From: Psychroserpens algicola
Lineage (GTDB): Bacteria; Bacteroidota; Bacteroidia; Flavobacteriales; Flavobacteriaceae
Direction: 5' to 3'
DNA length: 64,000 nt
NCBI RefSeq assembly: GCF_014526325.1
Contig: NZ_JACNMJ010000001.1
Span: forward strand, 310,001-374,000
In this document: piece by piece, positions 981-49,602 of the stretch
Numbering within the stretch: the first letter of the stretch is position 1
Layout: the number at the start of each line of letters is the position of its first letter
Translations under genes and position numbers: made by a program
Notes under the pieces: model-generated
Databases searched by the model: none
What the model was told of the DNA's origin: nothing
The model's input: only the letters and a program-made list of their open reading frames with translations

Positions 981-1025
981 CAAACTTAATTTTAAAAATT
1001 ATGAATATAATCCTGTAGTGTCATG
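981..1025 (-). promoter_or_regulatory. Operator site 1 with -7 box, upstream of GH2
   Basis: Plus-strand halves TCCTG at 1011-1015 and TCATG at 1021-1025 lie 10 bp apart. On the gene strand the repeat is followed, after exactly 22 bp, by TAAGTTTG (988-981), a perfect match to the Bacteroidota -7 box TAnnTTTG. The GH2 start codon lies about 24 bp further on. Same arrangement as eleven other sites in the window. Confidence 0.85.
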
Positions 1026-1084
1026 CTTTGACTAAGTTAATTTTAATGCTAAAAATGTGAATTAAATTAGGTTATAAATATGTA

Positions 1085-2530
1085 TTATCTTCTTGGCTGA
1101 TCATTTTGCGAAAACGGTTGACCCCTAGGAAACTGTTCTTCTAATAGTTTTTTCAGTTTCTTTTCTATTTTTTGATGCGTTTTATTTCCTGATAAATTAA
1201 CATAAGCTAACAAACTATTTTGATGCTCATAGAGTTCTGCTTCTAATATTTCATTCGTTACAGAATCTCTCCATTCGGTATATCTCCAGTTACCATCAGT
1301 AACTGTACAACCCATTATTTTTTTACCTCTCGCATAAACACTAAATGCTGCTTCATCCCATTTTTTATTGGGTTTATCAATAACCGAAAGAAAACTTTTG
1401 CCGTCAGAATCTGGTCCTTCCAAACCGCAATACTCAACTAGCGTAGAAAAGATATCCACATTTTCTATTAAAGCATCAGAAGTTTTACCAGTTACTCTTT
1501 TTTTATAGCTCGTTTCTCTACTAACAATTAAAGGCACTCTAACATCTATTTCTAAATTAGATTGCTTACACCATAACGCGTATTCCCCAATTTTATAACC
1601 ATGATCGCTCATAAAAATCACCATCGTATTTTTTCTTAAATCTAGCTTTTCTAAGGTTTCCATGACTTTCCCTACTTGTGCATCTATGTAACTGATTGAA
1701 GCATGATAACCATGTATTAACTCTCGCGTTAAATTATCATCTAAATCACCTTCTTTAGGAATTCCGTGATAGCTTTTTAATTCTCCCCATTTCGGAAGTG
1801 CCAACCTGTAAGCGCCTTCTGGTTTTTGCCTTGATGGAATTTTAAAATCATTTTTATCATATAAATCCCAGTATTTCTTAGGTGCATTATAAGGCAAATG
1901 TGGTTTACTTAAACCTACAAACATTATAAAATTATCGTCTTTTACCTTGTTTAAAGTTTCGATGGCATAATTAGCTGCACGTCCGTCTTTATAGGCGTCG
2001 TCTGGTACATCTGCATCTTCAAAAGCAGGTCCTTTTAAGGGTTTTACGCCTTCGGATTTTAGGCGTTCCATTAATGCTATATTTTCAGGTTTATGGTAAC
2101 TGTTTGCTTCTTTTTCGAAATAGGTTGTCCATTGGTTTTTATCATCACTACCATGATGATATACTTTACCAATACTTACCGTTTTGTATCCATTGTCTTT
2201 GAATAATTGCGGCATTGAAACCACCTCTTTATGCACTTTACGTAGTGGTGTGAAAATACTATAAATACCAAGTGTTTCTGGACGTAAACCTGTTAAAGTG
2301 CTCATTCTGGAAGGTGCACAAATAGCTTGTTGTACATAAGCTTTGTTAAACATAACACCTTCTGAGGCTAGTTTGTCTATGTTTGGTGTCATTGCGGTTT
2401 CGCTTCCATAACAACCTAATTCTGCTCTTAAATCATCTACATAAAAAATTAATACATTAGGTTTTTCTTTTTGAGCAGAAACTGATGTGTATGCACATAG
2501 TATGAGAAGTAAACCTATAATTTTTTTCAT
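1085..2530 (-). CDS. S1 family sulfatase, iduronate-2-sulfatase-like
   Basis: A type S1 (formylglycine) sulfatase that would remove sulfate esters from ulvan oligosaccharides. Counting from the upstream ATG at 2542, the metal-binding DD is at residues 36-37 and the C-A-P-S-R maturation motif at 75-79. The sequence around [18 protein letters not shown] and the late [14 protein letters not shown] motif resemble the iduronate-2-sulfatase group (S1_7). I prefer the ATG at 2530 because it starts a standard signal peptide ([20 protein letters not shown]) and is preceded by an A-rich ATAAAA stretch typical of this phylum; 2542 is possible. It is the last gene of an operon starting at 10153, 36 bp after the preceding stop. 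A formylglycine-generating maturase is needed and is not in the window. Exact substrate position is not determinable here. Confidence 0.92.
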
Positions 2531-2566
2531 TTTTATAACCATTGTATTATGCGATATTGATTCGTA

Positions 2567-4567: not shown

Positions 4568-4576
4568 TTTTTCAAC

Positions 4577-7348: not shown

Positions 7349-7351
7349 GAT

Positions 7352-10208: not shown

Positions 10209-10253
10209 CCAAAGTCTTATTTTTTTACATAAAAACTATCCTGTACTGTCTCG
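10209..10253 (-). promoter_or_regulatory. Operator site 2, upstream of the GH78 operon
   Basis: Half-sites TCCTG (10239-10243) and TCTCG (10249-10253), the second degenerate, are 10 bp apart. After 22 bp on the gene strand comes GACTTTGG (10216-10209), the weakest -7 box of the set (first T replaced by G, seventh base G). The start codon is at 10153. Confidence 0.7.
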
Positions 10254-10325: not shown

Positions 10326-10349
10326 AATTGATTAAGTGTTATTTATAAT

Positions 10350-12803
10350 TTATCTAATCATAAGCTTTGTATGGAAAACCCTTTGATTTTCATCAACAAC
10401 TTTTATAAGGTACAATCCTGATTTAAATTGCCCATTATTTGCAATATCAATTCTATCAGAATTCATAGTATCTTGATAAACAATTTTACCAAGCATATTG
10501 TAAATTATAACATTGGCTTTATTGACACTATTTAACTGAATTGTAAACGCATCGTCAGCTGGATTTGGAAAAATATTTGCCGTAAAGACATCAGCTTCAA
10601 CCTCAGGAGTACTGAGCGTTGTTGATTCTACGATCCATTTTGATCTATCGTCTGTGTTTCCGACATGTTCAATAACACCATTTGCATTGTGATAGATATA
10701 GTTTGAACCGTTTCGAGTTTCGAACTGATACGAACCATCAGTGCTATTATAAATTACTGTAAATTGTTTGTCGGAATCTTCTCTTGGTGCCGCAAAACCA
10801 GTATTAATGATATCATTTGCAGGATTTCCTGCAGCTCTTAAAATACCACGATCAGGCCTTTTACTTTCTATATTATAATAAGCACCAGCCAGTACAAACT
10901 CCCATTCTTTATCGCCAGGAGCGACATTGGTACCATCATCAGCCTCAACCACATCAGCACCTACGGAATGTAAGTACTTTCCTGTGACGAAATTCTTGAT
11001 GCGGTAAATATCACCTGTTAAATCAGTAGGATCAAAAACTTGAATATTAACTGTAATTTCAGTAGAATTCACAGTTGCATTACTCGCGTTATAGGCTACA
11101 GCTTGAATATCATAAGCACCTTCCGTAGTTGGTGTCCAATCTAAAGCGTAAGGTTCTGTGGTATCTTCACCAAATACTGCTCCATTAAGTAAAAACTCTA
11201 CTTTAGAAATACTCCCATTTTCATCTACAGCATCTGCGGAAATTGGTGTTGTTTCTCCTATGTTATAAGTTTCACCATCGAACGGAGAGGTTAACGACAC
11301 TCTAAAAGGTTCTTGTATAATATCTAAATCAATAATTTGAAGATATAATGGTTGGGCGCTACCAGATGCATTTTCCATCATATAATAGTACAGTTTGCCA
11401 TTGGCAATGTGTACCCGACCATGATCAAAGGTTTTTCCTGATGTAGCTTGATATACTGTAGTAAAATTATTAGTACCACCTTCCGTTTTTTCAACTTTAA
11501 CTCTACCATTACTTAAACCAATAATAAAGACATCATCTCCAGCAGTGTAAATAGCATCCGCACCAGAAAAGTTTTCTGAGGTTATAAAATCGGTAGCACC
11601 AGCCGGTTTATAAGTATGTAAATTCTTAGTAACATTAAATTCGTTATCTCTTACTCTGCTAATGATATGTACATCACCATTATCTGTAACCGTCCAATCG
11701 AAACCTTGTACGATGTAAACTTGATCAGTCTGGGTTGTTTGCACATAATCTCCAGGCTCCATTACTTTAATTAAGTCGGCATCGTATAGTGGCAAGCTGA
11801 AACTAGTACCTTCATGATTTTTCCAATTAGAAGCACCAGTTTGATCGTCAGAATACGCATAATATACACCGTTTTGATATTGGTACCTATCATTATTATC
11901 TGCAGAGCGTCGTTGAAAGCCGATTCTCATTTTACCGTTGACGTACTTTATGCTACCATAAAGTCCCCAATTATGAGATACACCAGATTGATTACCAGCA
12001 TTTAAAGCATTAAAATCAATAAAATTTGACCATGTAGCAGTTGTTGCATCGTACTTAGTGAACTTATACTTGCCATTATTATTACCACCTTCACGCATAT
12101 TCATCAAAAGTTCTCCTGCATCATTTAGAAAGAAAGATGGATAAGTTAATCCATCAAATTCATTTTGATTTTCATTACCTGTTAATTTTAAATGCTTGTA
12201 TCCACCACTTCCATTTTGAACGAATTTATCTAAAGTAAATTCGACATCAGAAAGGGTTGCCGTATTTGCAATTGAATAAGAATATCTGAAATAATCATTG
12301 GCTAAACTCCCATCTGATGGTCTTGTTGCACTATAGGCATGCATATCGTACAATAAGTGTATGGTTCCGTCTAAAGGACTTACACCAACAGCAATAGTAT
12401 TGTGAGATTCTCCGAGCCACCACTTATTTTGAAAACCCGTGTGTGTATGCGGAAACTCTATAGTTGCCATGGTACCAGTAACGGTGTTGTAACGCGTTAA
12501 CATGACATGTCTATCTGTTTTTCCACCACGATACCAAGTCATAAACACATAATCTCCGTAAGTCTTTATACAATCGCCATGTGCAGAAATGTTTCGTCCG
12601 AAAACATAGTCGTAAGTAGTGGTACTTCCATTATCAGCTGATGTATTTGGCACTTTGCTTCCATTAAAGTGTAAACCAAAATCTGTAATATGTACTTCAT
12701 TTTCTAAAACGACTTGTCCAAACTGAAGTTGAACAAAGCACAACATGAGAAGAAGGCCTAAATTTTTTCTTAAAAGCTTAATGCCTAGTGTATTTTTTTT
12801 CAT
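10350..12803 (-). CDS. Secreted ulvan lyase, PL24/PL25-type beta-propeller, with beta-trefoil and T9SS domains
   Basis: An 817-residue secreted endo-lyase that would cut ulvan at rhamnose-3-sulfate/uronic acid bonds by beta-elimination. After the signal peptide, residues about 33-500 look like the BNR-type seven-bladed propeller of PL24/PL25 lyases. His134 (GESHN) and His155 (LLYDMH) are 21 residues apart, which fits the catalytic His pair I recall for PL24 but which I could not verify. Next come an Ig-like domain (about 505-590, SPFDGETYNIG), a ricin-like beta-trefoil (about 597-735, DIYRIKNFVTGKYL) and a T9SS sorting domain (about 745-817, NIFPNPADD). The trefoil also occurs twice in the PL28 protein at 33560. 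The gene is a single-gene unit with its own operator and terminator. PL24 versus PL25 assignment is uncertain. Confidence 0.87.
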   Translation of the reverse strand: MKKNTLGIKLLRKNLGLLLMLCFVQLQFGQVVLENEVHITDFGLHFNGSKVPNTSADNGSTTTYDYVFGRNISAHGDCIKTYGDYVFMTWYRGGKTDRHVMLTRYNTVTGTMATIEFPHTHTGFQNKWWLGESHNTIAVGVSPLDGTIHLLYDMHAYSATRPSDGSLANDYFRYSYSIANTATLSDVEFTLDKFVQNGSGGYKHLKLTGNENQNEFDGLTYPSFFLNDAGELLMNMREGGNNNGKYKFTKYDATTATWSNFIDFNALNAGNQSGVSHNWGLYGSIKYVNGKMRIGFQRRSADNNDRYQYQNGVYYAYSDDQTGASNWKNHEGTSFSLPLYDADLIKVMEPGDYVQTTQTDQVYIVQGFDWTVTDNGDVHIISRVRDNEFNVTKNLHTYKPAGATDFITSENFSGADAIYTAGDDVFIIGLSNGRVKVEKTEGGTNNFTTVYQATSGKTFDHGRVHIANGKLYYYMMENASGSAQPLYLQIIDLDIIQEPFRVSLTSPFDGETYNIGETTPISADAVDENGSISKVEFLLNGAVFGEDTTEPYALDWTPTTEGAYDIQAVAYNASNATVNSTEITVNIQVFDPTDLTGDIYRIKNFVTGKYLHSVGADVVEADDGTNVAPGDKEWEFVLAGAYYNIESKRPDRGILRAAGNPANDIINTGFAAPREDSDKQFTVIYNSTDGSYQFETRNGSNYIYHNANGVIEHVGNTDDRSKWIVESTTLSTPEVEADVFTANIFPNPADDAFTIQLNSVNKANVIIYNMLGKIVYQDTMNSDRIDIANNGQFKSGLYLIKVVDENQRVFHTKLMIR

Positions 12804-12845: not shown

Positions 12846-12890
12846 TAAAATTAGTTGAAAAAACGATTGAATGCATCCTGTACAATACTG
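12846..12890 (-). promoter_or_regulatory. Operator site 3, upstream of the ulvan lyase
   Basis: TCCTG (12876-12880) and TACTG (12886-12890) are 10 bp apart. After 22 bp on the gene strand comes TAATTTTA (12853-12846), a -7 box with A for the last G. The start codon at 12803 is 42 bp further on. Confidence 0.82.
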
Positions 12891-13039: not shown

Positions 13040-13861
13040 TTATTCTTTTATTATTTTTTCACTGAAATTACTAAAGTTTTCTCCTTTTAGTTTTACGATA
13101 TACATACCACTACTAAATGAACTTATATCTAATTTTAATGATGATGTGTTATTTTCTATGTTACTTAACAATACACGTTGTCCAAGTAAGTTGTAAATAG
13201 AAATTTGCTTCACATTTGCAGTTAAACCATCTATTGTTAATTCTTCTTTTACAGGATTGGAGATAAAGATAGAGTTTGTGTCAAACTCATCAATACTTAA
13301 TGTAACAGAAGGCTCATAGTCTAGTTTTAATGCACTTCCACCACTACATTTAACCTCTGTACCTGAAAGACCACTAAGCGGTCCACCAGTAGTATTTTGC
13401 ACTCTTCTTTTAGCTGCACCCCAAGGTGCTGGTGAAAGATTGTTTTCACTAAAAAGTTGAGTCCCTGTACCTCTTGTAGGATTCCACCAATGCAATTGAT
13501 TTGGCACATCTGCAGCATCACGACCTTTGACTACCACTTTAGGATTCGCTTCTGTATCATCAATTTCTACCACTCCTTTGCCAGTAATAACAGATGTGAT
13601 AGTATAATTATTTCCTGATATCTGTTGAATGTCAAATATTTGTCTATTATTTGTCATATCTAATGGCTGATATGTAAGAACCTGAGATGATCCTGGTGCT
13701 AGTGGTGCATCATCTGGTAGTGTCAAATATAGGTCTTGAGTATTTACTTTAATTCTATACGTTCCTGCAGCGCCTGAGCCACCCCAAGCTTGTCCGTTAA
13801 CTTGAATAGCAAATAATGCTAAAACTAATAGCAATAGTGTTTTTTGTAATTTTGTTTTCAT
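13040..13861 (-). CDS. Secreted beta-trefoil-like T9SS protein of unknown function
   Basis: A 273-residue secreted protein, not recognised as any enzyme. The signal peptide ends VNGQ at about residue 24. Residues about 33-185 (GTYRIKVNTQDLYLTLPDD, QIFDIQQISGNNYTITS, QLHWWNP) look like a ricin-type beta-trefoil, a common sugar-binding fold. A T9SS sorting domain follows (about 190-273, FISNPVKEELTIDG, SGMYIVKLKGE). The sorting domain and the 3' flank are clearly paralogous to those of the gene at 14446, although the N-terminal halves differ. It has a private operator, -7 box and terminator, so it is transcribed alone, probably strongly. A role as an extracellular ulvan-binding protein is inferred from fold and regulation. 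Confidence 0.8.
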   Translation of the reverse strand: MKTKLQKTLLLLVLALFAIQVNGQAWGGSGAAGTYRIKVNTQDLYLTLPDDAPLAPGSSQVLTYQPLDMTNNRQIFDIQQISGNNYTITSVITGKGVVEIDDTEANPKVVVKGRDAADVPNQLHWWNPTRGTGTQLFSENNLSPAPWGAAKRRVQNTTGGPLSGLSGTEVKCSGGSALKLDYEPSVTLSIDEFDTNSIFISNPVKEELTIDGLTANVKQISIYNLLGQRVLLSNIENNTSSLKLDISSFSSGMYIVKLKGENFSNFSEKIIKE

Positions 13862-13934: not shown

Positions 13935-13979
13935 CTAAATTATTGTAGGAAGCCAGAGGAACTATCCTGTACTATACTG
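13935..13979 (-). promoter_or_regulatory. Operator site 4, upstream of the 13040 gene
   Basis: TCCTG (13965-13969) and TACTG (13975-13979) are 10 bp apart. After 22 bp comes TAATTTAG (13942-13935) as -7 box. About 73 bp of leader precede the start at 13861. Confidence 0.83.
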
Positions 13980-14445: not shown

Positions 14446-15375
14446 TTACTCTTTTATTATTTTTTTAGCAACACTAACACCATTCTCACCTTGTAGTTTT
14501 ACAATATAGATACCACTAGTGAGTATACTTACATCTAATATTGAAGATGACGCGTCATCTTCAATATTACTAGAAATTACTTGTTTTCCTAGTAAGTCGT
14601 AAACAGAAATTTGCTTAATGCTTTGATTTAAGCCCTCTATTGTCAACTGATCTTTCACAGGATTTGTAATAACAACAGAACTCGTATCAAATTCTTCAAC
14701 GCTCAATGGTAAATCCTCTACATAAATCCAACGCATCTCTTGAATTGTACCACCACTTTGCATCAAAACTGGGTCACCTGCCATCGATGGGACTGTACTA
14801 TATCTTAAGTTTCCTTGTGCGTTTCCTCCTGTTGGTGACGGTTTAGCGAATAAGGCATTGTTTCCAGGTCCACCCCAGCCACTTTCTCTTCTTCTTTGAA
14901 ACTGGTCAAAACCGTATGCTTCAGGATTAGGAGCTACAACAGTTGTATCATCTTGTGGAGTGCCAGGTCTAGCATCAATTTGAACTTCAGAATCACCTCC
15001 AGATCCATCATAACTTGCTTGATTTACAACCATAGTCCATTCTCCAGCACCAAGAGAAGTAAGGTCTGCTGTAATTTGTATAAAACCAGAACCAGCTGGA
15101 GCTACATGATCCTGTATAGCCCAATTTTGTGTTACTGCAGCAGCTCCTGTTAATTCAGTTTGCCATATTAAAAGAGGATCACCTTCACCAGCAGAAGCAT
15201 TAATAGTTAAATAAAGTTCTGGAGACAAACCACAAGTTGCAAGCTTATAAACAGCATCACCATTACCACCATCTTCTACACCGAGATATATCTCAGGGCA
15301 TGTCTGACCCTGTACTTGAAGTGCAGACAGAGCAAATAGTAAAAATGCACTAATTTTTAAAGTAATTTTTTTCAT
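14446..15375 (-). CDS. Secreted T9SS protein of unknown function, beta-trefoil-like
   Basis: A 309-residue secreted protein with no recognised enzymatic motif. The signal peptide ends VQGQ (about residue 24). Residues about 25-140 (AVYKLATCGLSPELYLTINAS, QNWAIQDH, GSGFIQIT) have the pattern of a trefoil- or lectin-like beta domain. A Gly/Pro/Arg-rich stretch follows (FQRRRESGWGGPGNNALFAK), then a T9SS domain (about 226-309, VITNPVKDQLTIEG, SGIYIVKLQGE) closely similar to that of the gene at 13040. Its transcription unit has its own operator (15450-15494) and strong terminator. It is probably an extracellular ulvan-binding or surface-adhesion protein, by inference. Paralogy with the 13040 gene is clear at the C-terminus and 3' flank and uncertain at the N-terminus. 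Confidence 0.78.
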   Translation of the reverse strand: MKKITLKISAFLLFALSALQVQGQTCPEIYLGVEDGGNGDAVYKLATCGLSPELYLTINASAGEGDPLLIWQTELTGAAAVTQNWAIQDHVAPAGSGFIQITADLTSLGAGEWTMVVNQASYDGSGGDSEVQIDARPGTPQDDTTVVAPNPEAYGFDQFQRRRESGWGGPGNNALFAKPSPTGGNAQGNLRYSTVPSMAGDPVLMQSGGTIQEMRWIYVEDLPLSVEEFDTSSVVITNPVKDQLTIEGLNQSIKQISVYDLLGKQVISSNIEDDASSSILDVSILTSGIYIVKLQGENGVSVAKKIIKE

Positions 15376-15449: not shown

Positions 15450-15494
15450 CAATATTAGTCCTAAAAATCAAAAAATCCATCCTGCACTATCCTG
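15450..15494 (-). promoter_or_regulatory. Operator site 5, upstream of the 14446 gene
   Basis: Two TCCTG half-sites (15480-15484 and 15490-15494) are 10 bp apart. After 22 bp comes TAATATTG (15457-15450) as -7 box. The start codon at 15375 is 74 bp downstream. Confidence 0.85.
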
Positions 15495-21920: not shown

Positions 21921-21965
21921 TAAAGGTATTCATATATGGTAATACCAGCATCCTGTTGTATCCTG
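21921..21965 (-). promoter_or_regulatory. Operator site 6, upstream of the GH5 operon
   Basis: Two TCCTG half-sites (21951-21955, 21961-21965) are 10 bp apart. After 22 bp on the minus strand comes TACCTTTA (21928-21921). The site is back to back with site 7 for the divergent PL28 gene; the first bases of the two cores are only about 40 bp apart. Confidence 0.83.
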
Positions 21966-22006: not shown

Positions 22007-22051
22007 CAGTATAGTTCAGGATGGTTCGTTTATTTTTATTATTTATTTTTG
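22007..22051 (+). promoter_or_regulatory. Operator site 7 in plus orientation, upstream of PL28
   Basis: The plus strand reads CAGTA (22007-22011) and CAGGA (22017-22021), 10 bp apart. After exactly 22 bp follows TATTTTTG (22044-22051), a perfect -7 box. It is the only copy in this orientation and it serves the only plus-strand gene, which starts at 22069. Confidence 0.88.
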
Positions 22052-22068
22052 AGAAAAATAGACGATAT

Positions 22069-23016
22069 ATGAAAAATTTCAATTTTAAAATCAAACTGGG
22101 ATTGATTGCCTTATTACTTGTTTTTGTAGCCTTCTCTTCTTGTACAAAAGATGGGCTTGGGTTATCTGAAGACATAATTGTTTATGAAATCCCAGACCCT
22201 GACTCTGACCCAGATCCAGATCCTGTTGTTATAGCTGCTGATGAAGATACAAGCACAGATTTAGCTTGTCCAGTTTCAGGTGAATTCCAGAACGATACTA
22301 CTAGAAATGTAGATGTACCAAACCCTGCTAATGATGGTGAGGTAGATGATAGAAGTTGCTACTCGGATTACTCAGAAAGTATTATTGAAGGTACTACTTG
22401 GGGAATATATAATATTACTGAGGGATCTAATCACTGGGATGCACCAGGAACTTTACAACCTCGAATAGAACGGGCATCAACCATAGCAAACGCTAATGTA
22501 GGGTCATTTGTAAAATTTACAGCAGACTTAAGAATCCTTGAAGCAGCGGATGCAGGATCTTTTGGTCAAGATGGAACTTACATAGCGCAAGCTAAAGGGC
22601 AACATACAGGCGGAGGCGGTTCTCCAGATCCTGCTATATGCTTATATAGAGCACATCCTGTTTATGGTACAGGTATTAATGCTGACAAACAAGTGGCGTT
22701 CGACATTTATGCAGAGCGTATCTTAGAACGCGGAGGAGAAGGAAGTGATGGTAGAGAAGTTGTTTTTCTAACACGCGTAGATAAAAACGAAATAGTTTCA
22801 TTTGAACTAGAAGTAGGATTTAGAGAAGACCCTAGTGATCCTACTTTAAAAATACATTATTGCAATGCTGTAATTGGAGGAGAAGCATTTAATTGGAATA
22901 TCCCAGAACCAGAAAGAGGTACGCAATCAAAAATGAGATATGGTGCTTACCGTGTTAGAGGAGGTAGAGCACAAATTAGATGGGCCAATACCACAATTGA
23001 AAGTGTTAATAATTAA
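22069..23016 (+). CDS. PL28 ulvan lyase, lipoprotein
   Basis: A 315-residue single-domain PL28-type ulvan lyase. I use the ATG at 22069 (MKNFNFKIKLGLIALLLVFV, then AFSSC): the upstream ATG at 22021 lies inside the operator and ahead of the -7 box and so cannot be transcribed from this promoter. After the lipobox Cys comes an acidic Asp-Pro linker, then the lyase domain. Marker segments are [69 protein letters not shown] and [18 protein letters not shown], nearly the same as in the secreted PL28 at 33560. It is probably membrane-anchored and cuts imported or surface-bound ulvan chains. It is the only plus-strand gene and forms a single-gene unit with a shared bidirectional terminator. Confidence 0.92.
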   Translation: MKNFNFKIKLGLIALLLVFVAFSSCTKDGLGLSEDIIVYEIPDPDSDPDPDPVVIAADEDTSTDLACPVSGEFQNDTTRNVDVPNPANDGEVDDRSCYSDYSESIIEGTTWGIYNITEGSNHWDAPGTLQPRIERASTIANANVGSFVKFTADLRILEAADAGSFGQDGTYIAQAKGQHTGGGGSPDPAICLYRAHPVYGTGINADKQVAFDIYAERILERGGEGSDGREVVFLTRVDKNEIVSFELEVGFREDPSDPTLKIHYCNAVIGGEAFNWNIPEPERGTQSKMRYGAYRVRGGRAQIRWANTTIESVNN

Positions 23017-27101: not shown

Positions 27102-27116
27102 GATTGTAATACCTTT

Positions 27117-28595: not shown

Positions 28596-28614
28596 AACTC
28601 AAAAGCGATTCTTA

Positions 28615-31452: not shown

Positions 31453-31456
31453 AAGT

Positions 31457-31501
31457 CAAGTATAATTAACTTATGATTATTTTGTATCCTGTACCTTACT
31501 G
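31457..31501 (-). promoter_or_regulatory. Operator site 8, upstream of the cytochrome-c/DUF1553 operon
   Basis: TCCTG (31487-31491) and TACTG (31497-31501) are 10 bp apart. After 22 bp comes TATACTTG (31464-31457), with C for the first T of TTTG. Only four bases (31456-31453) separate the box from the ATG, so the transcript may be leaderless. An in-frame TGA immediately upstream rules out a longer protein. Confidence 0.82.
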
Positions 31502-33447: not shown

Positions 33448-33492
33448 GAAAATTAACACTACTTCAAAGAAAAACTGTCCTGTTTTGTCCTG
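33448..33492 (-). promoter_or_regulatory. Operator site 9, upstream of the 31506 gene
   Basis: Two TCCTG half-sites (33478-33482, 33488-33492) are 10 bp apart. After 22 bp comes TAATTTTC (33455-33448) as -7 box. The start codon at 33422 is 25 bp downstream. Confidence 0.83.
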
Positions 33493-33559: not shown

Positions 33560-35563
33560 TTAATTTATTATCAATTTGGTCTGAACAGTTTTATTATCAT
33601 CCTTTGCAGCACTTACTATGTACAAACCAGGAGTTAAATTTCCATTATTACTAATTTCAATTTTTCCGTTAGTTGTTGAACCCTTAAAGACCACTTTTCC
33701 TAGCATATTGTAAATTGTTACATCTGCATCTAAACTATTGTTTAATGCAATGGTAAAATTTGTATTTGCTGGATTAGGATATACTTTAAGAGACGATACT
33801 GCTAATTCATTATCCTCAACACTTAAAGTTTCACTTGTTGGTATGGCTTCCCATACGCTTCTCATATCTGACTCAGCAGCTGGAATATGTGTTACGGTTC
33901 CATCCACTTCATGATACATAAATCTGCCACTAGTACCAGATTCAAATCTATAGGTATCCTCAGTATCGCTATAATGTAAGGTCCACACTTTATCACCGGA
34001 ACTTGTTGTCGTACCTGTGCTTAAAACTACATAAGGACCTCCTGGACCTCCGGAACCTGGCGCACGTAATATGCCGTTGACTTCACTGTCTATATTAACT
34101 AATGCGCCTTGTTGCACAAAAGTCCAATGAGTGTTTAGCGGTTCACCTGAATCGGTCATCGTAACTGGCGTAGCTGATGCCTCAGCATCGGTTAAGAATT
34201 GACCAGTAGCTACATTTCTAAATCTAAAAACGTCATCACTAGGTGGTGGACCTGAGTTGTCAACAACTTCAACTTTCTCATAAGTTGTATTTGCCCATCT
34301 CATTTGAGCTCTACCACCTCTCACACGATAAGCACCATATCTTATACCTGATTCCGTACCTCTTTCTGGTTCAGGTATATCCCAGTTAAAAGCTTCCCCA
34401 CCAATTACCGCGTCACAATAATGAATTTTTAAGGCTGGGTCATTAGTGTCTTCTCTAAAACCTATCTCTAGCTCAAAATCAATTTCTTCATTTTTATTGA
34501 CTCGCTTTAGAAAAACAACTTCTCTATCGCTACCTGATCCACCACGGACTAATATACGTTCGGCATAAATATCGAACGCCACCTGTTTGTCCGCATTGAT
34601 ACCTGTACCGTAAACAGGATGCGCTCTATATAAACAAATTGCAGGATCTGGCGGCCCTCCGCCACCAGTATGCTTACCTTTCGCTTGTATTAAATAACTA
34701 CCATCTTGGCCAAATGAGCCTCCGTCTCCTACTTCAAGAATTCTAAAAATTCCAGTGAATCTGGCATAACTTCCCACACCTGATTCTCCAGATCTAGGTA
34801 AAGAACGTTCTATTCTAGGTTGTAAGGTGCCTGGAGCATCCCAATGGTTTGACCCATCGGTAATATTATAAACACCCCAAGTTTTTCCATATAAATCAAC
34901 TTCTGAGTAATCGGAATAGCAACTTCTGTCGTCTACAGTTCCAACATTAACAGAATTTGGTATATCTACATTTCTAGTATTATCGTTTTGAAATTCACCT
35001 GAAGCAGGACAAGTTAGATCTGGATTTGTATCTTCATCTGGAGCTGTTTCTAAAGGGGTTTCTGTAAAAGGAATGAGTTCCCAATTACTTCTATCATCAG
35101 TCTCTGGAACTACTATATGTGTTACAGTACCATTTGCATCATGATACATAAATCTTCCACTATTACCCGATTGAAATCTATATGTATCATTCGTTTGATT
35201 ATGTTGTATGCTCCATACTTTATCAGAATCAGTTGCTGGTGCAGATGTAGCCGTACTAACAACTACAAAAGGACCTCCTGGTCCACCAGCACCTGGTCCG
35301 CGTAATATTCCTAAAATTTCACTATCTATATTATAAAATGCACCACTTTCTACAAACGTAAAATGGGTGCTTTGATCTTCTTCACTCAAATTTGTCATGG
35401 TAACTGCTGTTGCACTTACTCCTGCATCTGTTAAATATTGCCCAGTCTCTACATTTCTTAATCTAAAAATATCATCAGAAGGTGGTGCGTCTTGCGCAGT
35501 TATGCCTAGTGAGCATAACATAAAAACCAAAAATAACATGGCCTTAAACGTAATTTTTTTCAT
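33560..35563 (-). CDS. Secreted PL28 ulvan lyase flanked by two beta-trefoil domains, T9SS
   Basis: A 667-residue secreted lyase. The signal peptide ends ITAQ (residue 24). Residues about 28-165 and 438-575 are two copies of a ricin-like beta-trefoil ([30 protein letters not shown]). Between them, about 176-432, is a PL28 ulvan lyase domain ([68 protein letters not shown]). A T9SS sorting domain closes the protein (about 592-667, [12 protein letters not shown]). It would cut extracellular ulvan endolytically, the trefoils holding it on the polymer. Compared with the lipoprotein PL28 at 22069, the lyase domain is nearly the same but the export route differs. It is a single-gene unit with its own operator and terminator. 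Confidence 0.93.
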
Positions 35564-35582: not shown

Positions 35583-35627
35583 TAATGATATTAAATGTAG
35601 CTAAAAAAAGTATCCTGAACTATGCTG
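35583..35627 (-). promoter_or_regulatory. Operator site 10, upstream of the secreted PL28
   Basis: TCCTG (35613-35617) and TGCTG (35623-35627) are 10 bp apart. After 22 bp comes TATCATTA (35590-35583), a weak -7 box. The start codon at 35563 is 19 bp further on. Confidence 0.78.
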
Positions 35628-35713: not shown

Positions 35714-38700
35714 TTAATTAAGTGTTTTTATTACCACTGGCCCAATTAAACCCGAATCTTCTAGTTCCGTCTCATTTTTTTTTGGTGGATTGGTTGTCCA
35801 AGTTTTCTTTTGGTCTTTTGGTCTTTGATTATCAAAAATGAGCTGATTTCTCCAGGTATTGGTCACTTTTATCTCTAATTGATTTTCACCATTTGTCACA
35901 AATTCACTAATATCAAAAGTAAAAGGAGGTGCCCATTTTACACCGACTTTCTTATCATTACACCAAAGCTCTGCGATATCTGAGACCGCTCCTAAGTCGA
36001 TAATAGTTTGTTTCCCTGAATATTGTAAATTGAAGGTTTTGGAATATGTTGTGGTTCCTGAATAATGCTTAACAGCATCATTCTCCAATTCGGTAAGTGA
36101 TTTTAATTCTGAAATTTGAATAGACTTCGGAGTATCCCAACGGTCATTAAATGATAATTTCCAATCTGTTTGTAGGGATTGCTCATTGAATGTAATGGTT
36201 TTAGATGTTTTCTTACCATTTTGATAAAAAGTATATACTCCTGCTTTTGAAGCAAGCAAATTATCGCCTTTCCAAGATATGCTCGGAAAGCCTTCTGTAT
36301 CATGAATGTTACACCACCCAGTTTCAGCATTTAAAATAACGGCATTGTCATAAGTTACTTTTGAAGCAAAAGGCAATTTATCACCTTTTGAAAACACTAC
36401 AATTGCACTTCCACTTGGTGCAAAAGATAAGGCCACGTTGGTTCTATCATCTGATGTACTCCAAACTTTAGCATCTTGTTGTTCTCCGTTAAAAGCATTC
36501 CATAGTTGTGGATACACATCTTTAATTCTGAAACTCAATGAAGCATTAACTGGTTTATAATGATTTGAAGCCACAAAATAAATATGGGCATCGGCTGTTT
36601 CTCGGTGAATCCATTTTATATTTAAATCATCTGGAACAATGACATCTTGTGTAATACGTTCCGCTTCTAAAACAGCATCAAGTGATTTTCCCCAATATAC
36701 TTTTCCTTTTCCTACTTGCTTAAAACCTTCGCTTGTATTTCCCCATAACTCATCGGCTATTGCGGCTAATTCTTTTAAATCATTCTCATCATCCATTAAA
36801 CTAGGTGAACCTAATGGCTTATCACCAAGAATTACGGCTCCTGCCAGCACTAATTCTTTTAGTTTCTTTACCGTAGACAATAACATTTCTTTTGAATCTC
36901 TAAGCGTAATGATACGGTAATCTCCAGCATTCTCTACATGAATTTTACCATTTTCAACACTCAACTTATCGTGTAATATTTCAGCATTTAAATAGTCAAA
37001 ACGATAGCCTTTAGGAAATTCATCTAAGTCAAAAGGTGGACGCTCAAAATGGTCTCCATAGTATCTCAATACATCGGCAACATATTCACCTTGTTGCAAA
37101 ACATATTGGTTTCGCGCTAAATAGTCCGTCCAATCTTTCATGTATGGCCACCAAGTTTGTTGACGCACTAATGGAAAACCGATGTTACCTCCAAAACTAG
37201 ATCCTGGAAACACATCAGTTTGTGGTGTATGTGAAAAGGTATGAAACACCAAATGATTGACTCCCTTGGTAAAATTATAGTCGATTAAATATTTTACAGA
37301 AAACGGATGTTCATTCCATTTCACACCTAACTGTGTACAGGCTTCGGCAGCTAAAACTGGCTTATTATATAGGTGAACCGCAGACGCTGCATTAAATATT
37401 GGTTTTGCATATTCTCTTTGGGCAGATGGTTCCTTAGGATACCAAAACTCGGTCATTGGAATATCACTAACACCATAATAGCGCATAGGATCAATAGGTA
37501 AAACTTCGCCTCCTGCACCTTCGGTATATACTTCCGCTCCCATATCGTGCGCCACCGTTGCAAAATGTGTGAAGAAATTATCAATAAATACTTCATCCAT
37601 GGTATGACGTAAATCTCTTAAAAACTTAGTTGTTACTTCAGGGCTTTCAACGATATAACCCATGGTTGCAGGCAAATAGGTTTTCATGCTATAACCTCTA
37701 CGGTTTTCGAACTCGGCAAACATATCTTCAGAATTCATGGTCCAAGTAGGCACATGGCTTTCCCAGCTATCAATTAACAAACCGTGTAATTTTCCATCAC
37801 CAATTGGACCTCCATCTTTAATTAAGTTTCCAATCATACCGTTTCTTAAATGGTTTTCAATGGCAACTTTATCTAACTTACTAGATTCCCAACCCGTAGC
37901 TTCGGGCACTGCAGGTTTATTGGTTAATCGCATGTTGATATGACCAAAACGTACAATGGTCCAATTGCCCTCGGGAACGTCCCAAATTAATTGCCCTTCG
38001 GAAGTCATTTTATCAGAAAGATTAATAATTGCATTAGATTTAATAATAGTGTTTTGGGCATACTCTATTTGTGCATCGTCTTTAAGACGACGCAATACTT
38101 TAGCTGCTTTAGCTTGGTGATTATGTAGTTTCGGATTTGAACTTAATCGAATAAATTCTGGTGCAATATTATGATTACCTTGAAACGTGAACACGAATGA
38201 ATTTGATGTAGTTTCAGGAATCGCCAATGTGAGATGCTTACGACGATCATTCCAATTAGCATCAGGTAGTTTTACCGTTGTAATTGTTTTTAGTTCGCCA
38301 TCAACTAAAGCTTCAACTTTAAGAGCTACATCTACTTTTGGATATTGCGTACCTACAATGATATGACGCAATTGCGGAAACGTAATTGTGCGCAGTGTAA
38401 CAGGGTTTCTAAAGGTTATTTTTGTCCAAGCATCTTGACCATTTACTTTTGAAATACCTTTGGCTCTATATTGTTTTAAAGGTTGATCTAAATACGTATT
38501 TTTCCGTGTAACGATGAGTTTAGAACTTGGGTTAAAGATGGCTTTCCATGGGACTGCGCTATTATTGGTTTCAATTTTTGAAGGATTTAAGGGTTCTAAA
38601 TCATCTCCTTCTGGTGTTGGAAAAGCCAATACTTGAATATCTTGATAGTCATAATCTGGTATTGTATATAACGCATCTAATTCTAAAACCTCATTATAGG

Positions 38701-39187
38701 TTTGTCCACCTGAAACTCTGTAAACTGACTCAACCACCTCGCGTTGTGCCTCTTCCACAGGCACCCAAGGACCACCTGTCATAGACCAACCAGGACAATT
38801 TTGCATGGTAAATTTTAAGCCTAATCGCTTACATTCGTCTGCTGCATGCCTAATCATATCTTCCCATTCTGGTGATAGAATTTTAATAGGATCTACATTT
38901 GGAAATGGTCGTCCGTTTTTATTAAAAAGATGAATACCCTGTAAACCAGCAGCTTTTATAGCTTCTAAATCTAAAGTTAAACCTTCTTTACTAATGTTAT
39001 TTCCGCTAATATGAAACCAAGTTTCAGGATAATATTTTTTAGATGGTGATTTAAATTCGTCACTTAATTCTGTCAATGCTATTGACAATTGCGGATTGTC
39101 ATCCTTATGATTTTGTTCATGGGATTCACAACAAATCAGGCAAAGCGAAACTAGTAAACATAAAAAAATAGAGTACGAGATTTTCAT
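35714..39187 (-). CDS. GH106-type alpha-L-rhamnosidase, lipoprotein
   Basis: An 1157-residue protein with lipoprotein signal (SLCLICC). GH106 hallmarks are YPETWFHISGNNISKEGLTL with KAAGLQGIHLFN near the N-terminus, FTMQNCPGWSMTGGPWV, HGLLIDSWESHVPTWT and EVYTEGAGGE in the barrel, and a C-terminal jelly roll (GAVSDIAELWCNDKKVGVKW, NQLEIKVTNTWRNQLI). The enzyme should remove alpha-L-rhamnose by inversion, complementing the GH78 enzymes. Length and domain count fit the family. It stands alone between operator site 11 and the PL28 unit. Family assigned by motif memory; ulvan as substrate is inferred from context. Confidence 0.87.
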   Translation of the reverse strand: MKISYSIFLCLLVSLCLICCESHEQNHKDDNPQLSIALTELSDEFKSPSKKYYPETWFHISGNNISKEGLTLDLEAIKAAGLQGIHLFNKNGRPFPNVDPIKILSPEWEDMIRHAADECKRLGLKFTMQNCPGWSMTGGPWVPVEEAQREVVESVYRVSGGQTYNEVLELDALYTIPDYDYQDIQVLAFPTPEGDDLEPLNPSKIETNNSAVPWKAIFNPSSKLIVTRKNTYLDQPLKQYRAKGISKVNGQDAWTKITFRNPVTLRTITFPQLRHIIVGTQYPKVDVALKVEALVDGELKTITTVKLPDANWNDRRKHLTLAIPETTSNSFVFTFQGNHNIAPEFIRLSSNPKLHNHQAKAAKVLRRLKDDAQIEYAQNTIIKSNAIINLSDKMTSEGQLIWDVPEGNWTIVRFGHINMRLTNKPAVPEATGWESSKLDKVAIENHLRNGMIGNLIKDGGPIGDGKLHGLLIDSWESHVPTWTMNSEDMFAEFENRRGYSMKTYLPATMGYIVESPEVTTKFLRDLRHTMDEVFIDNFFTHFATVAHDMGAEVYTEGAGGEVLPIDPMRYYGVSDIPMTEFWYPKEPSAQREYAKPIFNAASAVHLYNKPVLAAEACTQLGVKWNEHPFSVKYLIDYNFTKGVNHLVFHTFSHTPQTDVFPGSSFGGNIGFPLVRQQTWWPYMKDWTDYLARNQYVLQQGEYVADVLRYYGDHFERPPFDLDEFPKGYRFDYLNAEILHDKLSVENGKIHVENAGDYRIITLRDSKEMLLSTVKKLKELVLAGAVILGDKPLGSPSLMDDENDLKELAAIADELWGNTSEGFKQVGKGKVYWGKSLDAVLEAERITQDVIVPDDLNIKWIHRETADAHIYFVASNHYKPVNASLSFRIKDVYPQLWNAFNGEQQDAKVWSTSDDRTNVALSFAPSGSAIVVFSKGDKLPFASKVTYDNAVILNAETGWCNIHDTEGFPSISWKGDNLLASKAGVYTFYQNGKKTSKTITFNEQSLQTDWKLSFNDRWDTPKSIQISELKSLTELENDAVKHYSGTTTYSKTFNLQYSGKQTIIDLGAVSDIAELWCNDKKVGVKWAPPFTFDISEFVTNGENQLEIKVTNTWRNQLIFDNQRPKDQKKTWTTNPPKKNETELEDSGLIGPVVIKTLN

Positions 39188-39213: not shown

Positions 39214-39258
39214 TTAAGGTAAAAAGATGCCTATGAAAAACTATCCTGTTTCATCCTG
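39214..39258 (-). promoter_or_regulatory. Operator site 11, upstream of GH106
   Basis: Two TCCTG half-sites (39244-39248, 39254-39258) are 10 bp apart. After 22 bp comes TACCTTAA (39221-39214) as a weak -7 box. The start codon is at 39187. Confidence 0.8.
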
Positions 39259-41039: not shown

Positions 41040-41060
41040 ATCCTAGCAATTATAAAAAAC

Positions 41061-41095
41061 AAAAAAGGATAATTATTAATTCAATATCCTTTTTT
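41061..41095 (-). terminator. Hairpin between GH105 and the 39294 sulfatase
   Basis: AAAAAAGGATA (41061-41071) pairs with TATCCTTTTTT (41085-41095) around a 13-nt AT loop. It may be a partial terminator or an mRNA-stabilising hairpin, as no promoter signal follows it. Confidence 0.6.
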
Positions 41096-41114
41096 ACTTT
41101 TTTTTAATTTCAAT

Positions 41115-42257: not shown

Positions 42258-42260
42258 TTT

Positions 42261-44528: not shown

Positions 44529-44557
44529 TATTGTTATACTAATTTTAGTGTCTATTT

Positions 44558-45901: not shown

Positions 45902-45969
45902 GCCCTATGACTTTAATTCTGGATGATTATTCCATTTTTTCATATTGTCCCTTTAGACTTTAATTTTTA

Positions 45970-48900
45970 TTAAAACGAGTTAATTTTTAGCTGTATGGTA
46001 TGTTTTCCAGGTGTTAATCTTATAGATTCAAAAGCAGAAGGTACTTTTTCTCCATTATGGATTAAGTCCTTTCCGTCCAAACCGTTTAACGTAAACTCAG
46101 CCACCATATTCCCTGGAATTTCGATTTCATACGTTTGCAATCTAGCTCCATTATAAGTGTACTTAGCTTTAATTGTTCCTCTCACGGTTGGTACTTCAAT
46201 CTCGCTCGATTTTAACTTACTCATCTGAGGTTTAATCGTTGCTATACCAAATCCTGGTGTTTTAGGTTTTATTCCCCATAATCCGCGAGGAATTACATTT
46301 GCAGGAACAGCTCCCCAAGCATGGTTCCAGTCTAGATTATTCTTGTATTTATTGTCCCAAGCCTCCAGAGTAATAGTAGAACCGATTTTTATCATGTTAT
46401 ACCAACTTCTATCTGAAGTATCCGTTAATAAATCTAGTGCATAATCAGCTTCACCAGCATTGTATAAACCATCCATTAAAAATTGTGCTCCGTAAACACT
46501 ACACGCCATTCCTCTAGATTTTACGTAATTTACAACAGATTCAAAATGTTCTTCTGGCACTAAACCAAAGGCTAAAGGCATCATATTAGCATGAAGCGAT
46601 GCATGGTCTGTACCAATACCATCTACGTAGATACCACGTTCTGCATCGAACATCTGTTCGTTAACCGCTTTTTTAGCTTTAGCCGCTCTATATTCAAAGT
46701 CCATAGCTTCTTGCGTTTTACCAAGAATCTTTGCAAACTCTGCCATAATCTTCATGTTCTCATAAAAAAATGAGTTAATCACAGTACTGTATGGTTTAAA
46801 TACAAAGCCGTCGCGTTCTCCTTTTGTTTTACTACCGTTAAAGTTTGGTCCAGGCCAATCAACGATATCTGTTAATGGCTTTTTATAACCCTCTGGGAAA
46901 CCTAATTTTTTCATGAATTCCGCATCAACTTTAGTCGATGTTATGAGACCATCTTCATTAGATAATTCGAATAAAGATTTATGTTTTAACGCCTCGTAAT
47001 AACGCTCAATAAGTTCGGTATTACCTGTGTACATGTAGTCGGCATAAATTAATAAAGGTACATGTTGTTGCCACTCTGTTGGCCATGTAGGATTTTTCAT
47101 AAAATACTCAATGGTACGTCTTCCTATTGCATATTCTCTATCTGTAGTATAATGACTTAATTGATTTAAATAGGCATCTGCTTCATAAGGAATACGCTCT
47201 CTATCACCATCTACGTATAAGCCATTAAAGGTTGTTGCTTTAATTGAGTATTTACATAAATCCCAAACTTGATTTAAAATTTCATTATTACTCTCAAAAC
47301 TACTAGCTTCTTCATCCCAATAGGTATGAAATGCTAATTGTGTAAAGTCTTCAGCTTTAACATCATTTTGAGCACCTTCTATCTCTGCATACCTGAAAGG
47401 TACTAAGGGTGGAAAACCATTTGGTAAAGGCACAGCTTTGTTTGCTCTTGTGTTGCGTTCGTCTTCATGCACTTTAATCTGATATTTTGTTTGACCCGGT
47501 TTTACATCCACCTTAATTTCTTGATAACGAATATTACTTTTTTTAGGTGGCGTTCTATTTAAATTCCCTTTATCATTAGCCATTTCGCCTACATGTATGG
47601 TTAAGGTATGTGGTGTTTTGGCGTTATAGCTAAAATCCATGGTTGCAAAAGCCGCTTTTCCGAAATCAATGAAATAGAAGTCACCTCTTTTTTCAAACTT
47701 TACTGGTTTAACTTCTGTGGTAACAAATTTATTTTCTGTTGAAATGATGTAACTATCACTCTTTCCAGTAGTAAACTTTTGTGCATCTGCATAGTCAACT
47801 AGTCGGTTGGCTTCATCCCAAATTCTAACTTTCCAATAATAGGTTTTTCCAACTTCTAAGGCTTTACCTTCATACTCAACATTCGTTGATTTTATAGATG
47901 CGACTCTTCCACTATCCCAAACATCTCCGTTATTATTATCAATATGAGTCTTATTTGATGAAACTAGAATTTGATAAGCACCTTGGTATTTTGCACCTAA
48001 TGGGACTGTCCATCCAAATTCTGGTTTTAAATCGAAAATCTTAACATCCTTGCTTGGTTCTCTTATCAATTCTACTGTTAAATCTGTTGGCGCAGCTCTA
48101 TATTCGTTACTATTTTTCTTAATTAGCTCATCAGTTTTTGCTCTTAAATTATCTAATATGTCTCTATATTTCTTCTTGCCAACAAGATTTTTAATTTCTT
48201 GTGGATCTTTCTCTAAATCGTAAAGTTCTTCAATAGATTTATCATTAACATATCTGAAGTATTTCCATTTTTTAGTCCTCACACCTTCACTTGGAGGTAT
48301 TTCTTCAAAATCCCATAAATGCTCAATTAAAATAGTATCTCTTGCGATTGTATTTGCTTCCTTATTAACTATTGGCATTAAACTTTTTCCTTGCCATGAT
48401 TCTGGTGCTTTAACACCTGCCAAATCTGCAATAGTTTGAGGTACATCAATATTTAACACCATATCATTAATATCTTGATGCGTATTTACTCTAGGATCAA
48501 AAACTATTAATGGTACTCTAATAGAGTTATCGTACATTAACCATTTTCCTGCTAGTTTACGTTCACCTAAAAAATAACCGTTATCTCCCATAACTATGAT
48601 AACCGTATTTTTATCAAGTCCCTTTTCCTTTAATTTTGCTCTAATTTTAGCGATTTCTAAATCAATACCAGAAATCATTCGGTAGTACCCTTTTAAACTA
48701 TGTTGGTATTTTTCTGGAGTATCGTAACGCCATGTCCAACGTAACCAGTTAAATCCTTTCTTTACAATTTCAGGTTGTGCGTTAAAGTATTTATCATCGC
48801 CAAGTTCTGGTCCTGGAATGGTGGTATTTTCTAAAAGCTTATCTGTAGTATTTTGCCAGAAGTATTGTTCTGGAGCTCCATCATGAGCATGAGGTGCACT

Positions 48901-49497
48901 AAAACTTAAAGATAAACAGAATGGTTTTTCGTTTGTTGCATTATTATCGATAAAATCGAGTGCTTTTTGACCTGTATAACGCGTTAAGTGGACTGTGTCG
49001 TTATCAAGTGTTTTATAATAATAACCTCTTCTATCCTTATAACGGTTATTTCTGTCGTAAGATTCAAACTCATCAAATTGCTTATCTAAATCATCATAAC
49101 GCACACCATACTTACCATAAAACCCTGTGTGATATCCATTATTTTTAAGAACCGTTGGGTACGATTCATCCATATATTCGCTTCTAATATTTCCTGTTTG
49201 AAAATTGAAGTTATGAGCACGTTCTTGCAAACCCGTTAAAATACTTGCTCTACTTGCCGCACAAATAGGAGTTGTTACAATAGCAGAATTAAAGTAAGTC
49301 CCTGATTCAGCTAGTTTGTCCATTTCTGGAGTCTCAACGTACTTGTTTCCAGCATAACCGATAGCATCAAAGCGTTGATCGTCTGTAAGAATGAAAATGA
49401 TATTAGGCTTTTCAGTTTTGGTTTGTTGTTGAGCATTAGCCATATTCAAACTACACACTACACCTAAAAGCACTAATAAATAACTATTTTTAAACAT
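45970..49497 (-). CDS. Bifunctional S1 sulfatase - GH78 rhamnosidase fusion
   Basis: A 1175-residue exported protein (signal ends ANAQ, residue 22). Residues about 28-475 are a sulfatase, with TDD at 38-40, the maturation motif C-A-A-S-R at 79-83 (Ala instead of the usual Pro) and the late [17 protein letters not shown]. Residues about 480-1175 are a GH78 unit: Ig-like domain ([24 protein letters not shown]), jelly roll, barrel with [18 protein letters not shown] and [10 protein letters not shown], and C-terminal sandwich. It would remove sulfate and then rhamnose from Rha3S ends in one protein. A multimodular sulfatase of this type is known in the Formosa agariphila ulvan locus. It leads the operon running to the sulfatase at 39294, under operator site 12. 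Confidence 0.94.
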
Positions 49498-49557
49498 ATA
49501 TAAACGTCTTAATTGTTTGTTTTAATTTAGATAACTTTGGACTATTATCATAATTTT

Positions 49558-49602
49558 TAAAAATAAGTTTTAATCCTCCGCCTTCTATCCTGTTCTATCC
49601 TG
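49558..49602 (-). promoter_or_regulatory. Operator site 12, upstream of the sulfatase-GH78 operon
   Basis: Two TCCTG half-sites (49588-49592, 49598-49602), each preceded by TA, are the most symmetric copy of the set. After 22 bp comes TATTTTTA (49565-49558), with A for the last G of the -7 box. The start codon is at 49497. Confidence 0.87.

What the first reader, a model, noticed from the sequence alone, without database searches (positions are those of the whole stretch)
981..49602. Twelve copies of one direct-repeat operator with fixed 22-bp spacing to a -7 box: a locus-wide regulon
Directly seen: twelve intergenic sites made of two half-sites related to CAGGATA (gene strand) 10 bp apart, consensus about CAGKATAGTACAGGATA. 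First core bases on the plus strand are at 1011, 10239, 12876, 13965, 15480, 21951, 22007, 31487, 33478, 35613, 39244 and 49588. In every case, counting 22 bp from the proximal CAGGA places a box related to TAnnTTTG: TAAGTTTG, TAATTTTA, TATTTTTG, TATTTTTA and others, with TA at its start in eleven of twelve. No clear -33 element lies in the spacer, so the bound protein would replace -33 contacts. The 10-bp repeat equals one helical turn, as expected for an activator with tandem HTH units (AraC-type hybrid two-component regulators are one candidate). I know of no described operator of this form for ulvan loci.
Basis: partly seen in the sequence, partly recalled or inferred. Interest (0 to 1): 0.9.

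Follow-up and report, generated by a model that had tools for sequence, protein, structure and literature searches.

The report
Rhamnose-linked switch for seaweed-polysaccharide genes
A short repeated DNA tag sits at one fixed distance in front of the start signals of a seaweed-degrading gene cluster and of the genes that burn its main sugar, rhamnose, and it travels with one little-studied regulator protein that most likely binds it to switch these genes together.

Summary
All 12 sites exist; seven more lie outside the window, giving 19 in C8:282-393 kb. A model of the 19 finds no other genome hit above 13.5 bits (these: 21.8-30.5). Each site points at a gene; CAGGATA lies where a -33 element would be, TAnnTTTG at one exact spacing. 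Of 55 non-redundant sites from relatives, 39 carry the box at that offset and at most 3 at any of 55 other offsets.

The regulator is probably not AraC/HTCS: none is encoded within the regulon's span, the nearest AraC-type gene being 18 kb beyond its last site. The motif tracks a protein with a GntR helix and a LacI-like sensor, divergent from the rhamnose operon: 38 of 38 Flavobacteriaceae genomes with a close ortholog have the motif, against 2 of 121 others (E<=0.0025). Among those 38, genomes with PL28 ulvan lyase have a median of 17 sites, the rest 5. So this looks like a rhamnose regulon that has engulfed an ulvan locus. Promoter-locked activation is the best mechanism; repression is not excluded. 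Some GntR proteins are known to use direct repeats, but I found no described GntR rhamnose or ulvan regulator. There are no binding or expression data.

The parts
1009..1025 (-). Operator CATGACACTACAGGATT; -7 box TAAGTTTG at 981-988; upstream of the minus-strand gene that begins at 957 (C8:307913-310957). Weakest member.
   Evidence: 25.6 bits; leave-one-out 9.9
10237..10253 (-). Operator CGAGACAGTACAGGATA upstream of the GH78 / GH78 / GH115_C-domain / sulfatase run (10153 down to 1085); no TA at the exact -7 position (GACTTTGG, 10209-10216)
12874..12890 (-). Operator CAGTATTGTACAGGATG; -7 TAATTTTA 12846-12853; upstream of 10350-12803, which has an ulvan-lyase beta-trefoil domain (PF24208)
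13963..13979 (-). Operator CAGTATAGTACAGGATA; -7 TAATTTAG 13935-13942; upstream of 13040-13861 (T9SS tail, sub-threshold lectin match)
15478..15494 (-). Operator CAGGATAGTGCAGGATG; -7 TAATATTG 15450-15457; upstream of 14446-15375 (T9SS tail)
21949..21965 (-). Operator CAGGATACAACAGGATG; -7 TACCTTTA 21921-21928; upstream of the GH5-like / GH3 / T9SS-tail / sulfatase run
22007..22023 (+). Operator CAGTATAGTTCAGGATG; -7 TATTTTTG 22044-22051; upstream of PL28 ulvan lyase (true start probably 22069)
   Evidence: (30.5 bits)
31485..31501 (-). Operator CAGTAAGGTACAGGATA; -7 TATACTTG 31457-31464; upstream of the 28615-31452 run (box only 5 bp from the longest frame's start)
33476..33492 (-). Operator CAGGACAAAACAGGACA; -7 TAATTTTC 33448-33455; upstream of 31506-33422 (no Pfam match)
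35611..35627 (-). Operator CAGCATAGTTCAGGATA; -7 TATCATTA 35583-35590; upstream of long PL28 ulvan lyase 33560-35563
39242..39258 (-). Operator CAGGATGAAACAGGATA; -7 TACCTTAA 39214-39221; upstream of GH106 35714-39187
49586..49602 (-). Operator CAGGATAGAACAGGATA; -7 TATTTTTA 49558-49565; upstream of sulfatase-GH78 fusion 45970-49497
55029..64000 (-). Two SusD-family genes and two TonB-receptor (SusC-type) genes, the last running out of the window; the site that faces them is at C8:375072-375088, outside the window

Best explanation
The motif is the operator of a single cytoplasmic regulator: an N-terminal GntR winged helix fused to a LacI/periplasmic-binding-protein-like sensor, encoded by the frame C8:282295-283428 (true start uncertain; analysed from 282394), 27 kb left of the window and divergent from the rhamnose operon. 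The sensor most likely binds L-rhamnose or a product of it. The protein lies on direct repeats of 10 bp on one face of the DNA, the proximal CAGGATA at the -33 position, 20 bp before TAnnTTTG, and most likely recruits sigma-A RNA polymerase (class-II-type activation). Through it, rhamnose released from ulvan would switch on lyases, rhamnosidases, sulfatases, SusCD and the rhamnose, glucuronate and xylose-type pathways together. Shown by computation: operator, geometry, candidate regulon, co-occurrence with the GntR gene, fold class. Inferred: direct binding, ligand, activation.
For: Own genome: 19 sites in C8:282-393 kb at 21.8-30.5 bits; best other hit 13.5 bits (the 19 trained the model, the 12-site matrix found the other 7). 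Of 159 Flavobacteriaceae genomes 38 have a close GntR ortholog (E<1e-120, 54% identity or more); all 38 have the motif at E<=0.0025, against 2 of 121 others (one of the 38 is the training genome). Of 80 named GntR loci 79 hold a site of 19 bits or more in the fetched flank (up to 10 kb): 140 hits against 2 in reversed sequence. This includes genomes without PL28, e.g. G023, whose contig length equals that of the Zobellia uliginosa record; its two strong sites flank the GntR gene. Around the 80 loci only GntR, RhaB-, RhaI- and aldolase-type genes recur in more than half; among the 22 commonest families I saw no other DNA-binding regulator (10 match own-locus genes, 8 of the other 12 were scanned with Pfam). 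Where GntR lies far from the aldolase gene (e.g. G107, G184, G144, G163, G180) the motif still precedes the aldolase gene. -7 box at the exact offset in 39 of 55 non-redundant sites, at most 3 of 55 at any of 55 other offsets (sites chosen on the core only). All 12 PL28 genomes are among the 38 and have a median of 17 sites against 5. GntR helix; LacI-type sensor fold, Foldseek E 1e-11, TM about 0.5.
Against: No binding, footprint or expression data. All 38 close-GntR genomes also have the rhamnose aldolase gene, so another protein conserved with rhamnose use cannot be fully excluded. Five aldolase genomes have only diverged GntR (38-47% identity); four of them fail the motif threshold, but four of the five (all but G067) show core scores of 15.1-23.0 bits near the genes at a loosened cut, so they do not cleanly separate regulator from pathway. 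G043, without a close GntR, has one partial 21.3-bit hit. The flavobacterial GntR AusR is described as a repressor. Most GntR operators are palindromes. The sensor matches Pfam PF13377 only below its cut-off (23.8 against 26.5 bits). Three of 18 long non-convergent gaps in the span have no site. No strong site faces the GntR gene itself.
Confidence: 0.7

Rival explanations
1. The same GntR/LacI-like protein binds the motif but as a repressor that blocks the -33 region and is released by rhamnose.
For: The flavobacterial GntR AusR is described as a repressor; DeoR-type rhamnose regulators, one of them a shown repressor, have predicted direct repeats of 10-11 bp; many of the sensor's nearest folds are LacI-family repressors.
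Against: A repressor operator need not keep one orientation and an exact spacing to the -7 box, yet 39 of 55 sites keep it and at most 3 of 55 show any other given spacing; a TTG occurs in the -33 stretch in only 5 of 55.
Confidence: 0.2
2. Another regulator (AraC-type, HTCS or unknown) that is inherited together with rhamnose catabolism binds the motif; GntR is a bystander.
For: All 38 close-GntR genomes have the aldolase gene; tandem half-sites one turn apart would also suit an AraC domain; B. thetaiotaomicron uses AraC-type RhaR.
Against: No other DNA-binding regulator seen among the 22 commonest gene families around 80 GntR loci (four families not scanned, one scanned without match); none of the genome's 20 HTH_18 matches is in the locus; predicted HTCS and AraC rhamnose motifs repeat at about 21 bp.
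Confidence: 0.08
3. The conserved blocks are a promoter of an alternative (ECF) sigma factor rather than an activator site plus sigma-A promoter.
For: Rigid spacing is typical of a sigma factor's two elements (recalled).
Against: The downstream box is the sigma-A -7 consensus TAnnTTTG known from F. psychrophilum, whose ECF-type motif has a CGT box; a sigma factor does not need two or more 10-bp repeats; arrays of 3-6 units occur.
Confidence: 0.02

Closest known systems
AraR-type GntR/LacI hybrid regulators (Bacillus subtilis AraR)
   Same: GntR winged helix plus LacI-like sugar sensor (AraR's sensor recalled); AraR DNA-binding domain is among the solved relatives (4egy, E 4e-5); sugar regulon
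   Different: AraR binds a palindrome (recalled) and is deposited as a repressor; here a non-palindromic 10-bp direct repeat locked to the -7 box
GntR-family proteins with direct-repeat operators (NanR, FarR, NagQ; MocR-type GabR, TauR, PdxR)
   Same: Direct-repeat operators in the GntR family; some MocR members are activators
   Different: Other repeat sequences and sensor domains; no fixed spacing to a -7 box reported in the passages I read
Rhamnose regulators RhaR/RhaS (AraC), RhaR (DeoR), RhaR (LacI) of Rodionova et al. 2013 (PMC3870299)
   Same: Same pathway; DeoR-type motifs are direct repeats of 10-11 bp
   Different: None of the three families is GntR; the main text has no occurrence of GntR or Flavobacteri
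HTCS regulons of Bacteroides (PMC3878776)
   Same: Direct-repeat operators in front of polysaccharide loci
   Different: Membrane AraC-type hybrids, repeats about 21 bp apart; none encoded in this span
AusR of Zobellia galactanivorans (alginate locus)
   Same: GntR regulator of a marine flavobacterial polysaccharide system
   Different: Described as a repressor of alginate genes; the primary paper was not held, known only from citing text

Membership tests
GntR/LacI hybrid (AraR-type) regulator | N-terminal GntR winged helix | tested here: met
   PF00392, 44 bits against cut-off 27
GntR/LacI hybrid (AraR-type) regulator | C-terminal LacI/periplasmic-binding-protein-like sensor | tested here: met
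   Fold match to LacI-family structures, E 1e-11, model pLDDT 86, TM about 0.5; Pfam PF13377 only 23.8 against 26.5 bits
GntR/LacI hybrid (AraR-type) regulator | Palindromic GT..AC operator | tested here: not met
   Best inverted alignment of the motif 5.29 against direct 10-bp 9.0 and direct 5-bp 9.81
GntR/LacI hybrid (AraR-type) regulator | Binds the operator; sugar ligand | not testable with these tools
   needs protein
HTCS regulon | HTCS gene at the locus | tested here: not met
   20 HTH_18 matches, none in C8:260001-410000; the three with frames over 1300 aa lie at C8:919 kb, C8:1295 kb and C10 (that these are HTCS is inferred from length, domains not checked)
HTCS regulon | Direct repeat about 21 bp apart | tested here: not met
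   10 bp; 21 bp on average in PMC3878776
MocR-type GntR | Aminotransferase-like sensor | tested here: not met
   NCBIfam MocR models match only residues 3-86, the DNA-binding part; sensor fold is LacI-like
Known rhamnose regulator groups (AraC, DeoR, LacI) | Family of the DNA-binding domain | tested here: not met
   GntR domain
Class-II-type activated promoter | Site overlaps the -33/-35 position at fixed spacing, no -33 element | tested here: met
Class-II-type activated promoter | Expression depends on the bound protein | not testable with these tools
   needs mutant and reporter

The most novel reading that the evidence does not exclude
A family-wide rhamnose regulator of Flavobacteriaceae, GntR helix on a LacI-like sensor, works as a promoter-locked activator that stacks head-to-tail on 10-bp direct repeats (up to six units upstream of one promoter), and in ulvan degraders its regulon has grown from one or a few rhamnose promoters to about 20, so that a cytoplasmic monosaccharide signal commands a whole polysaccharide locus.
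Probability: 0.55. Interest if true: 0.75.

Novelty: new variant of a known kind. Interest (0 to 1): 0.62.

Why it matters
How ulvan loci are switched on was not found in the open papers searched here. This names one testable protein, one operator and a list of 19 promoters, and suggests how a small sugar regulon can be extended over a 110-kb degradation locus by planting one 17-bp site per promoter. It would also be a GntR-family operator with a strict -7 spacing, useful as a rhamnose-inducible promoter part for flavobacteria.

Tried and rejected
Chance: rejected. AraC/HTCS candidate within the span: none. Hidden palindrome in the motif: scored, and lower than direct repeats. Reading the five diverged-GntR aldolase genomes as clean negatives: rejected, because weaker sites appear in four of them (whether each is intergenic was not checked); the within-aldolase test (38 of 38 against 1 of 5) is therefore weaker than its p-value. 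The E<=0.0025 cut was chosen after seeing the list; at E<=0.001 it is 36 of 38 against 1 of 121, and at E<=0.02 38 of 38 against 13 of 121, where about 2.4 would be expected by the stated E-values, which the tool calls rough. Genome handles were read off the listings and typed in. Site counts per genome are matches at E<=0.02 under strict filters. The 55 sites come from 35 of the 80 loci, were collapsed from 112 at 75% identity, and still share ancestry. Orthologs were not put on a tree; tests treat genomes (nearly all one per genus) as independent. The HTCS-sized frames could not be checked for domains: the loci held are 3 kb and contain no complete frame of that size. Literature: ten searches, listings read; passages read from PMC3878776, PMC11253607, PMC12125979, PMC12858550, PMC3870299, PMC5320631, PMC9296495, PMC9723704, PMC4494728, PMC8073546; none read whole. 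Most subscription papers are not covered.
Full report
Check of the observation. The window is C8:310001-374000 of a 3.8-Mb genome. All twelve sites are there, oriented towards the next gene. A matrix from the twelve finds exactly them in the window at 15 bits or more, against 0.2 per shuffle in 50 dinucleotide shuffles (best shuffle hit 21.1 bits); leave-one-out scores are 18.5-28.1 bits for eleven and 9.9 for the one at 1009. TA starts the predicted -7 box in 11 of 12.

Extension. The same matrix finds seven further intergenic sites in the 90 kb of flanks that I fetched, at C8:282101, 294236, 375069, 380195, 380280, 392935 and 393069 (starts of the 22-mers), and one hit inside a frame at 269826. 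A 49-column sequence model of the 19 sites gives 19 genome hits of 21.8-30.5 bits, all in C8:282-393 kb, and nothing else above 13.5 bits. By consensus with at most 2 mismatches 10 of 11 genome matches are in the locus, one at C8:663572; with 3 mismatches the count (28) is no better than the reversed pattern (25). Of 18 non-convergent gaps of 100 bp or more in C8:282-394 kb, 15 hold a site; the site at 31485 lies in a 53-bp gap. Three of four divergent gaps hold two sites, one per direction; the fourth, between the rhamnose operon and the GntR gene, holds one, facing the rhamnose operon.

What is regulated. The downstream genes include PL28 ulvan lyases, a protein with an ulvan-lyase beta-trefoil domain, GH78, GH106, GH3 and GH5-type enzymes, sulfatases and SusC/SusD-type genes. 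Outside the window they include the bifunctional rhamnulose-phosphate aldolase/dehydrogenase (above its NCBIfam cut-off) with a rhamnose-isomerase-like gene (below its cut-off) and an FGGY kinase, a symporter with a xylose-isomerase-like gene and another FGGY kinase, glucuronate isomerase, and mannonate dehydratase, D-mannonate oxidoreductase and KduI. These fit routes for rhamnose, glucuronate and xylose, the sugars of ulvan (composition recalled). Operon extents are assumed from gene order.

Geometry. In the 19 own sites no column between the core and the box exceeds 0.35 bits; at the box T is found in 17 and A in 19 of 19. In the 80 named loci I selected sites on the core alone; after collapsing at 75% identity 55 remain, from 35 loci, and 39 of 55 have a good -7 box at the exact offset, against at most 3 of 55 at each of 55 other offsets from -20 to +35. 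The proximal CAGGATA thus lies about where a -33 element would be. The half-sites match as a direct repeat at 10 bp, and also at 5 bp; inverted alignments score lower. In three of the 55 sites the array has 4, 3 and 6 units, all added upstream, none downstream; two further multi-unit sites are in G024.

Which protein. No HTH_18 match lies in C8:260001-410000; an AraC with a cupin lies at 410895. A LacI-type gene lies at C8:260048-261100 and was not tested further. The GntR frame at C8:282295-283428 is divergent from the rhamnose operon with a site in between. Its AlphaFold2 model (pLDDT 86) matches LacI-family structures, its N-terminus GntR structures. In a first set of 57 genomes the full-length hits above 22 bits occur in G000, G023, G024 and G033, all with close GntR genes; G037, of another family and with a 55% ortholog, has weaker sites, and G043, without a close GntR, one partial 21.3-bit hit. 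In 159 family genomes close GntR occurs in 38, the motif in all 38 at E<=0.0025 and in 2 of 121 others. The aldolase gene occurs in 43: those 38 plus five with diverged GntR; four of the five show weaker cores of 15.1-23.0 bits. In several genomes GntR is far from the aldolase gene, which still has the motif in front (G107, G184; G144, G163, G180). 79 of 80 named GntR loci (Winogradskyella, Algibacter, Polaribacter, Zobellia, Flavobacterium and others) have a site of 19 bits or more; 140 hits in all against 2 in reversed sequence. Among the 22 commonest gene families there I saw no other DNA-binding regulator; 8 of the 12 without an own-locus match were scanned with Pfam, one of them without any match.

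Link to ulvan. 12 of 159 genomes have PL28; all 12 are among the 38, and they carry a median of 17 sites against 5 in the other 26 (Mann-Whitney p 1.2e-5; 2.8e-5 without the own genome). G194 is an exception with 4. Some lyase genes that lie apart from the main cluster have a site about 170-230 bp before the start of the lyase-domain match, e.g. G183:C11:61514-61559 before 61749 and G107:C1:1238257-1238301 before 1238499; the listing of sites was cut, so this was not counted over all lyase genes.

Mechanism. Shown: operator, geometry, candidate regulon and co-occurrence. Inferred: the GntR protein binds it, senses rhamnose or a derivative, and activates. Activation is favoured by orientation and exact spacing; repression cannot be excluded without expression data.

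Known context. HTCS motifs repeat at about 21 bp (PMC3878776, passages). Known rhamnose regulators are AraC, DeoR and LacI; DeoR types have 10-11-bp direct repeats (PMC3870299, passages). GntR operators are mostly palindromes with direct-repeat exceptions (PMC4494728, PMC5320631, passages). TAnnTTTG is the sigma-A -7 box of flavobacteria (PMC9723704, passages). I found no GntR rhamnose or ulvan regulator in the listings.

Noticed in passing
22007-22069: The longest reading frame of the PL28 lyase starts inside the operator (22021); the real start is probably the ATG at 22069 (MKNFNFK).
   Followed up: partly
31452-31464: The -7 box of the site at 31485 ends 5 bp before the start of the longest frame, so that mRNA would be nearly leaderless or the frame starts later.
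   Followed up: no
L092-L096 (G024 C30:50001-142552): A paralogous GntR (67-69% identity) lies on the same contig stretch as several sites with an altered distal half (CAGGKTT...CAGGATG): perhaps a paralog-specific operator dialect.
   Followed up: no
L199:2818-2877 (Maribacter MAG): Six 10-bp units in a row ahead of one promoter, only the last at the fixed distance to TATATTTG.
   Followed up: partly
26001-31452: A cluster with PSCyt1/PSCyt2/PSD1 and DUF1501 domains, best known from planctomycetes (recalled), inside a flavobacterial ulvan locus and with its own operator.
   Followed up: no
53643-53830: A 186-bp gap between genes without any site, the only non-convergent gap of 100 bp or more in the window lacking one.
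   Followed up: no
own genus, G001-G022: No close GntR ortholog in the 22 other genomes of the genus searched (two have 35-37% relatives), so the regulator, and perhaps the locus, is patchy within the genus.
   Followed up: partly
L142:8557-9606 and relatives: In many Flavobacterium loci the site near GntR precedes a RhaT rhamnose symporter gene, a one-promoter version of the regulon.
   Followed up: partly
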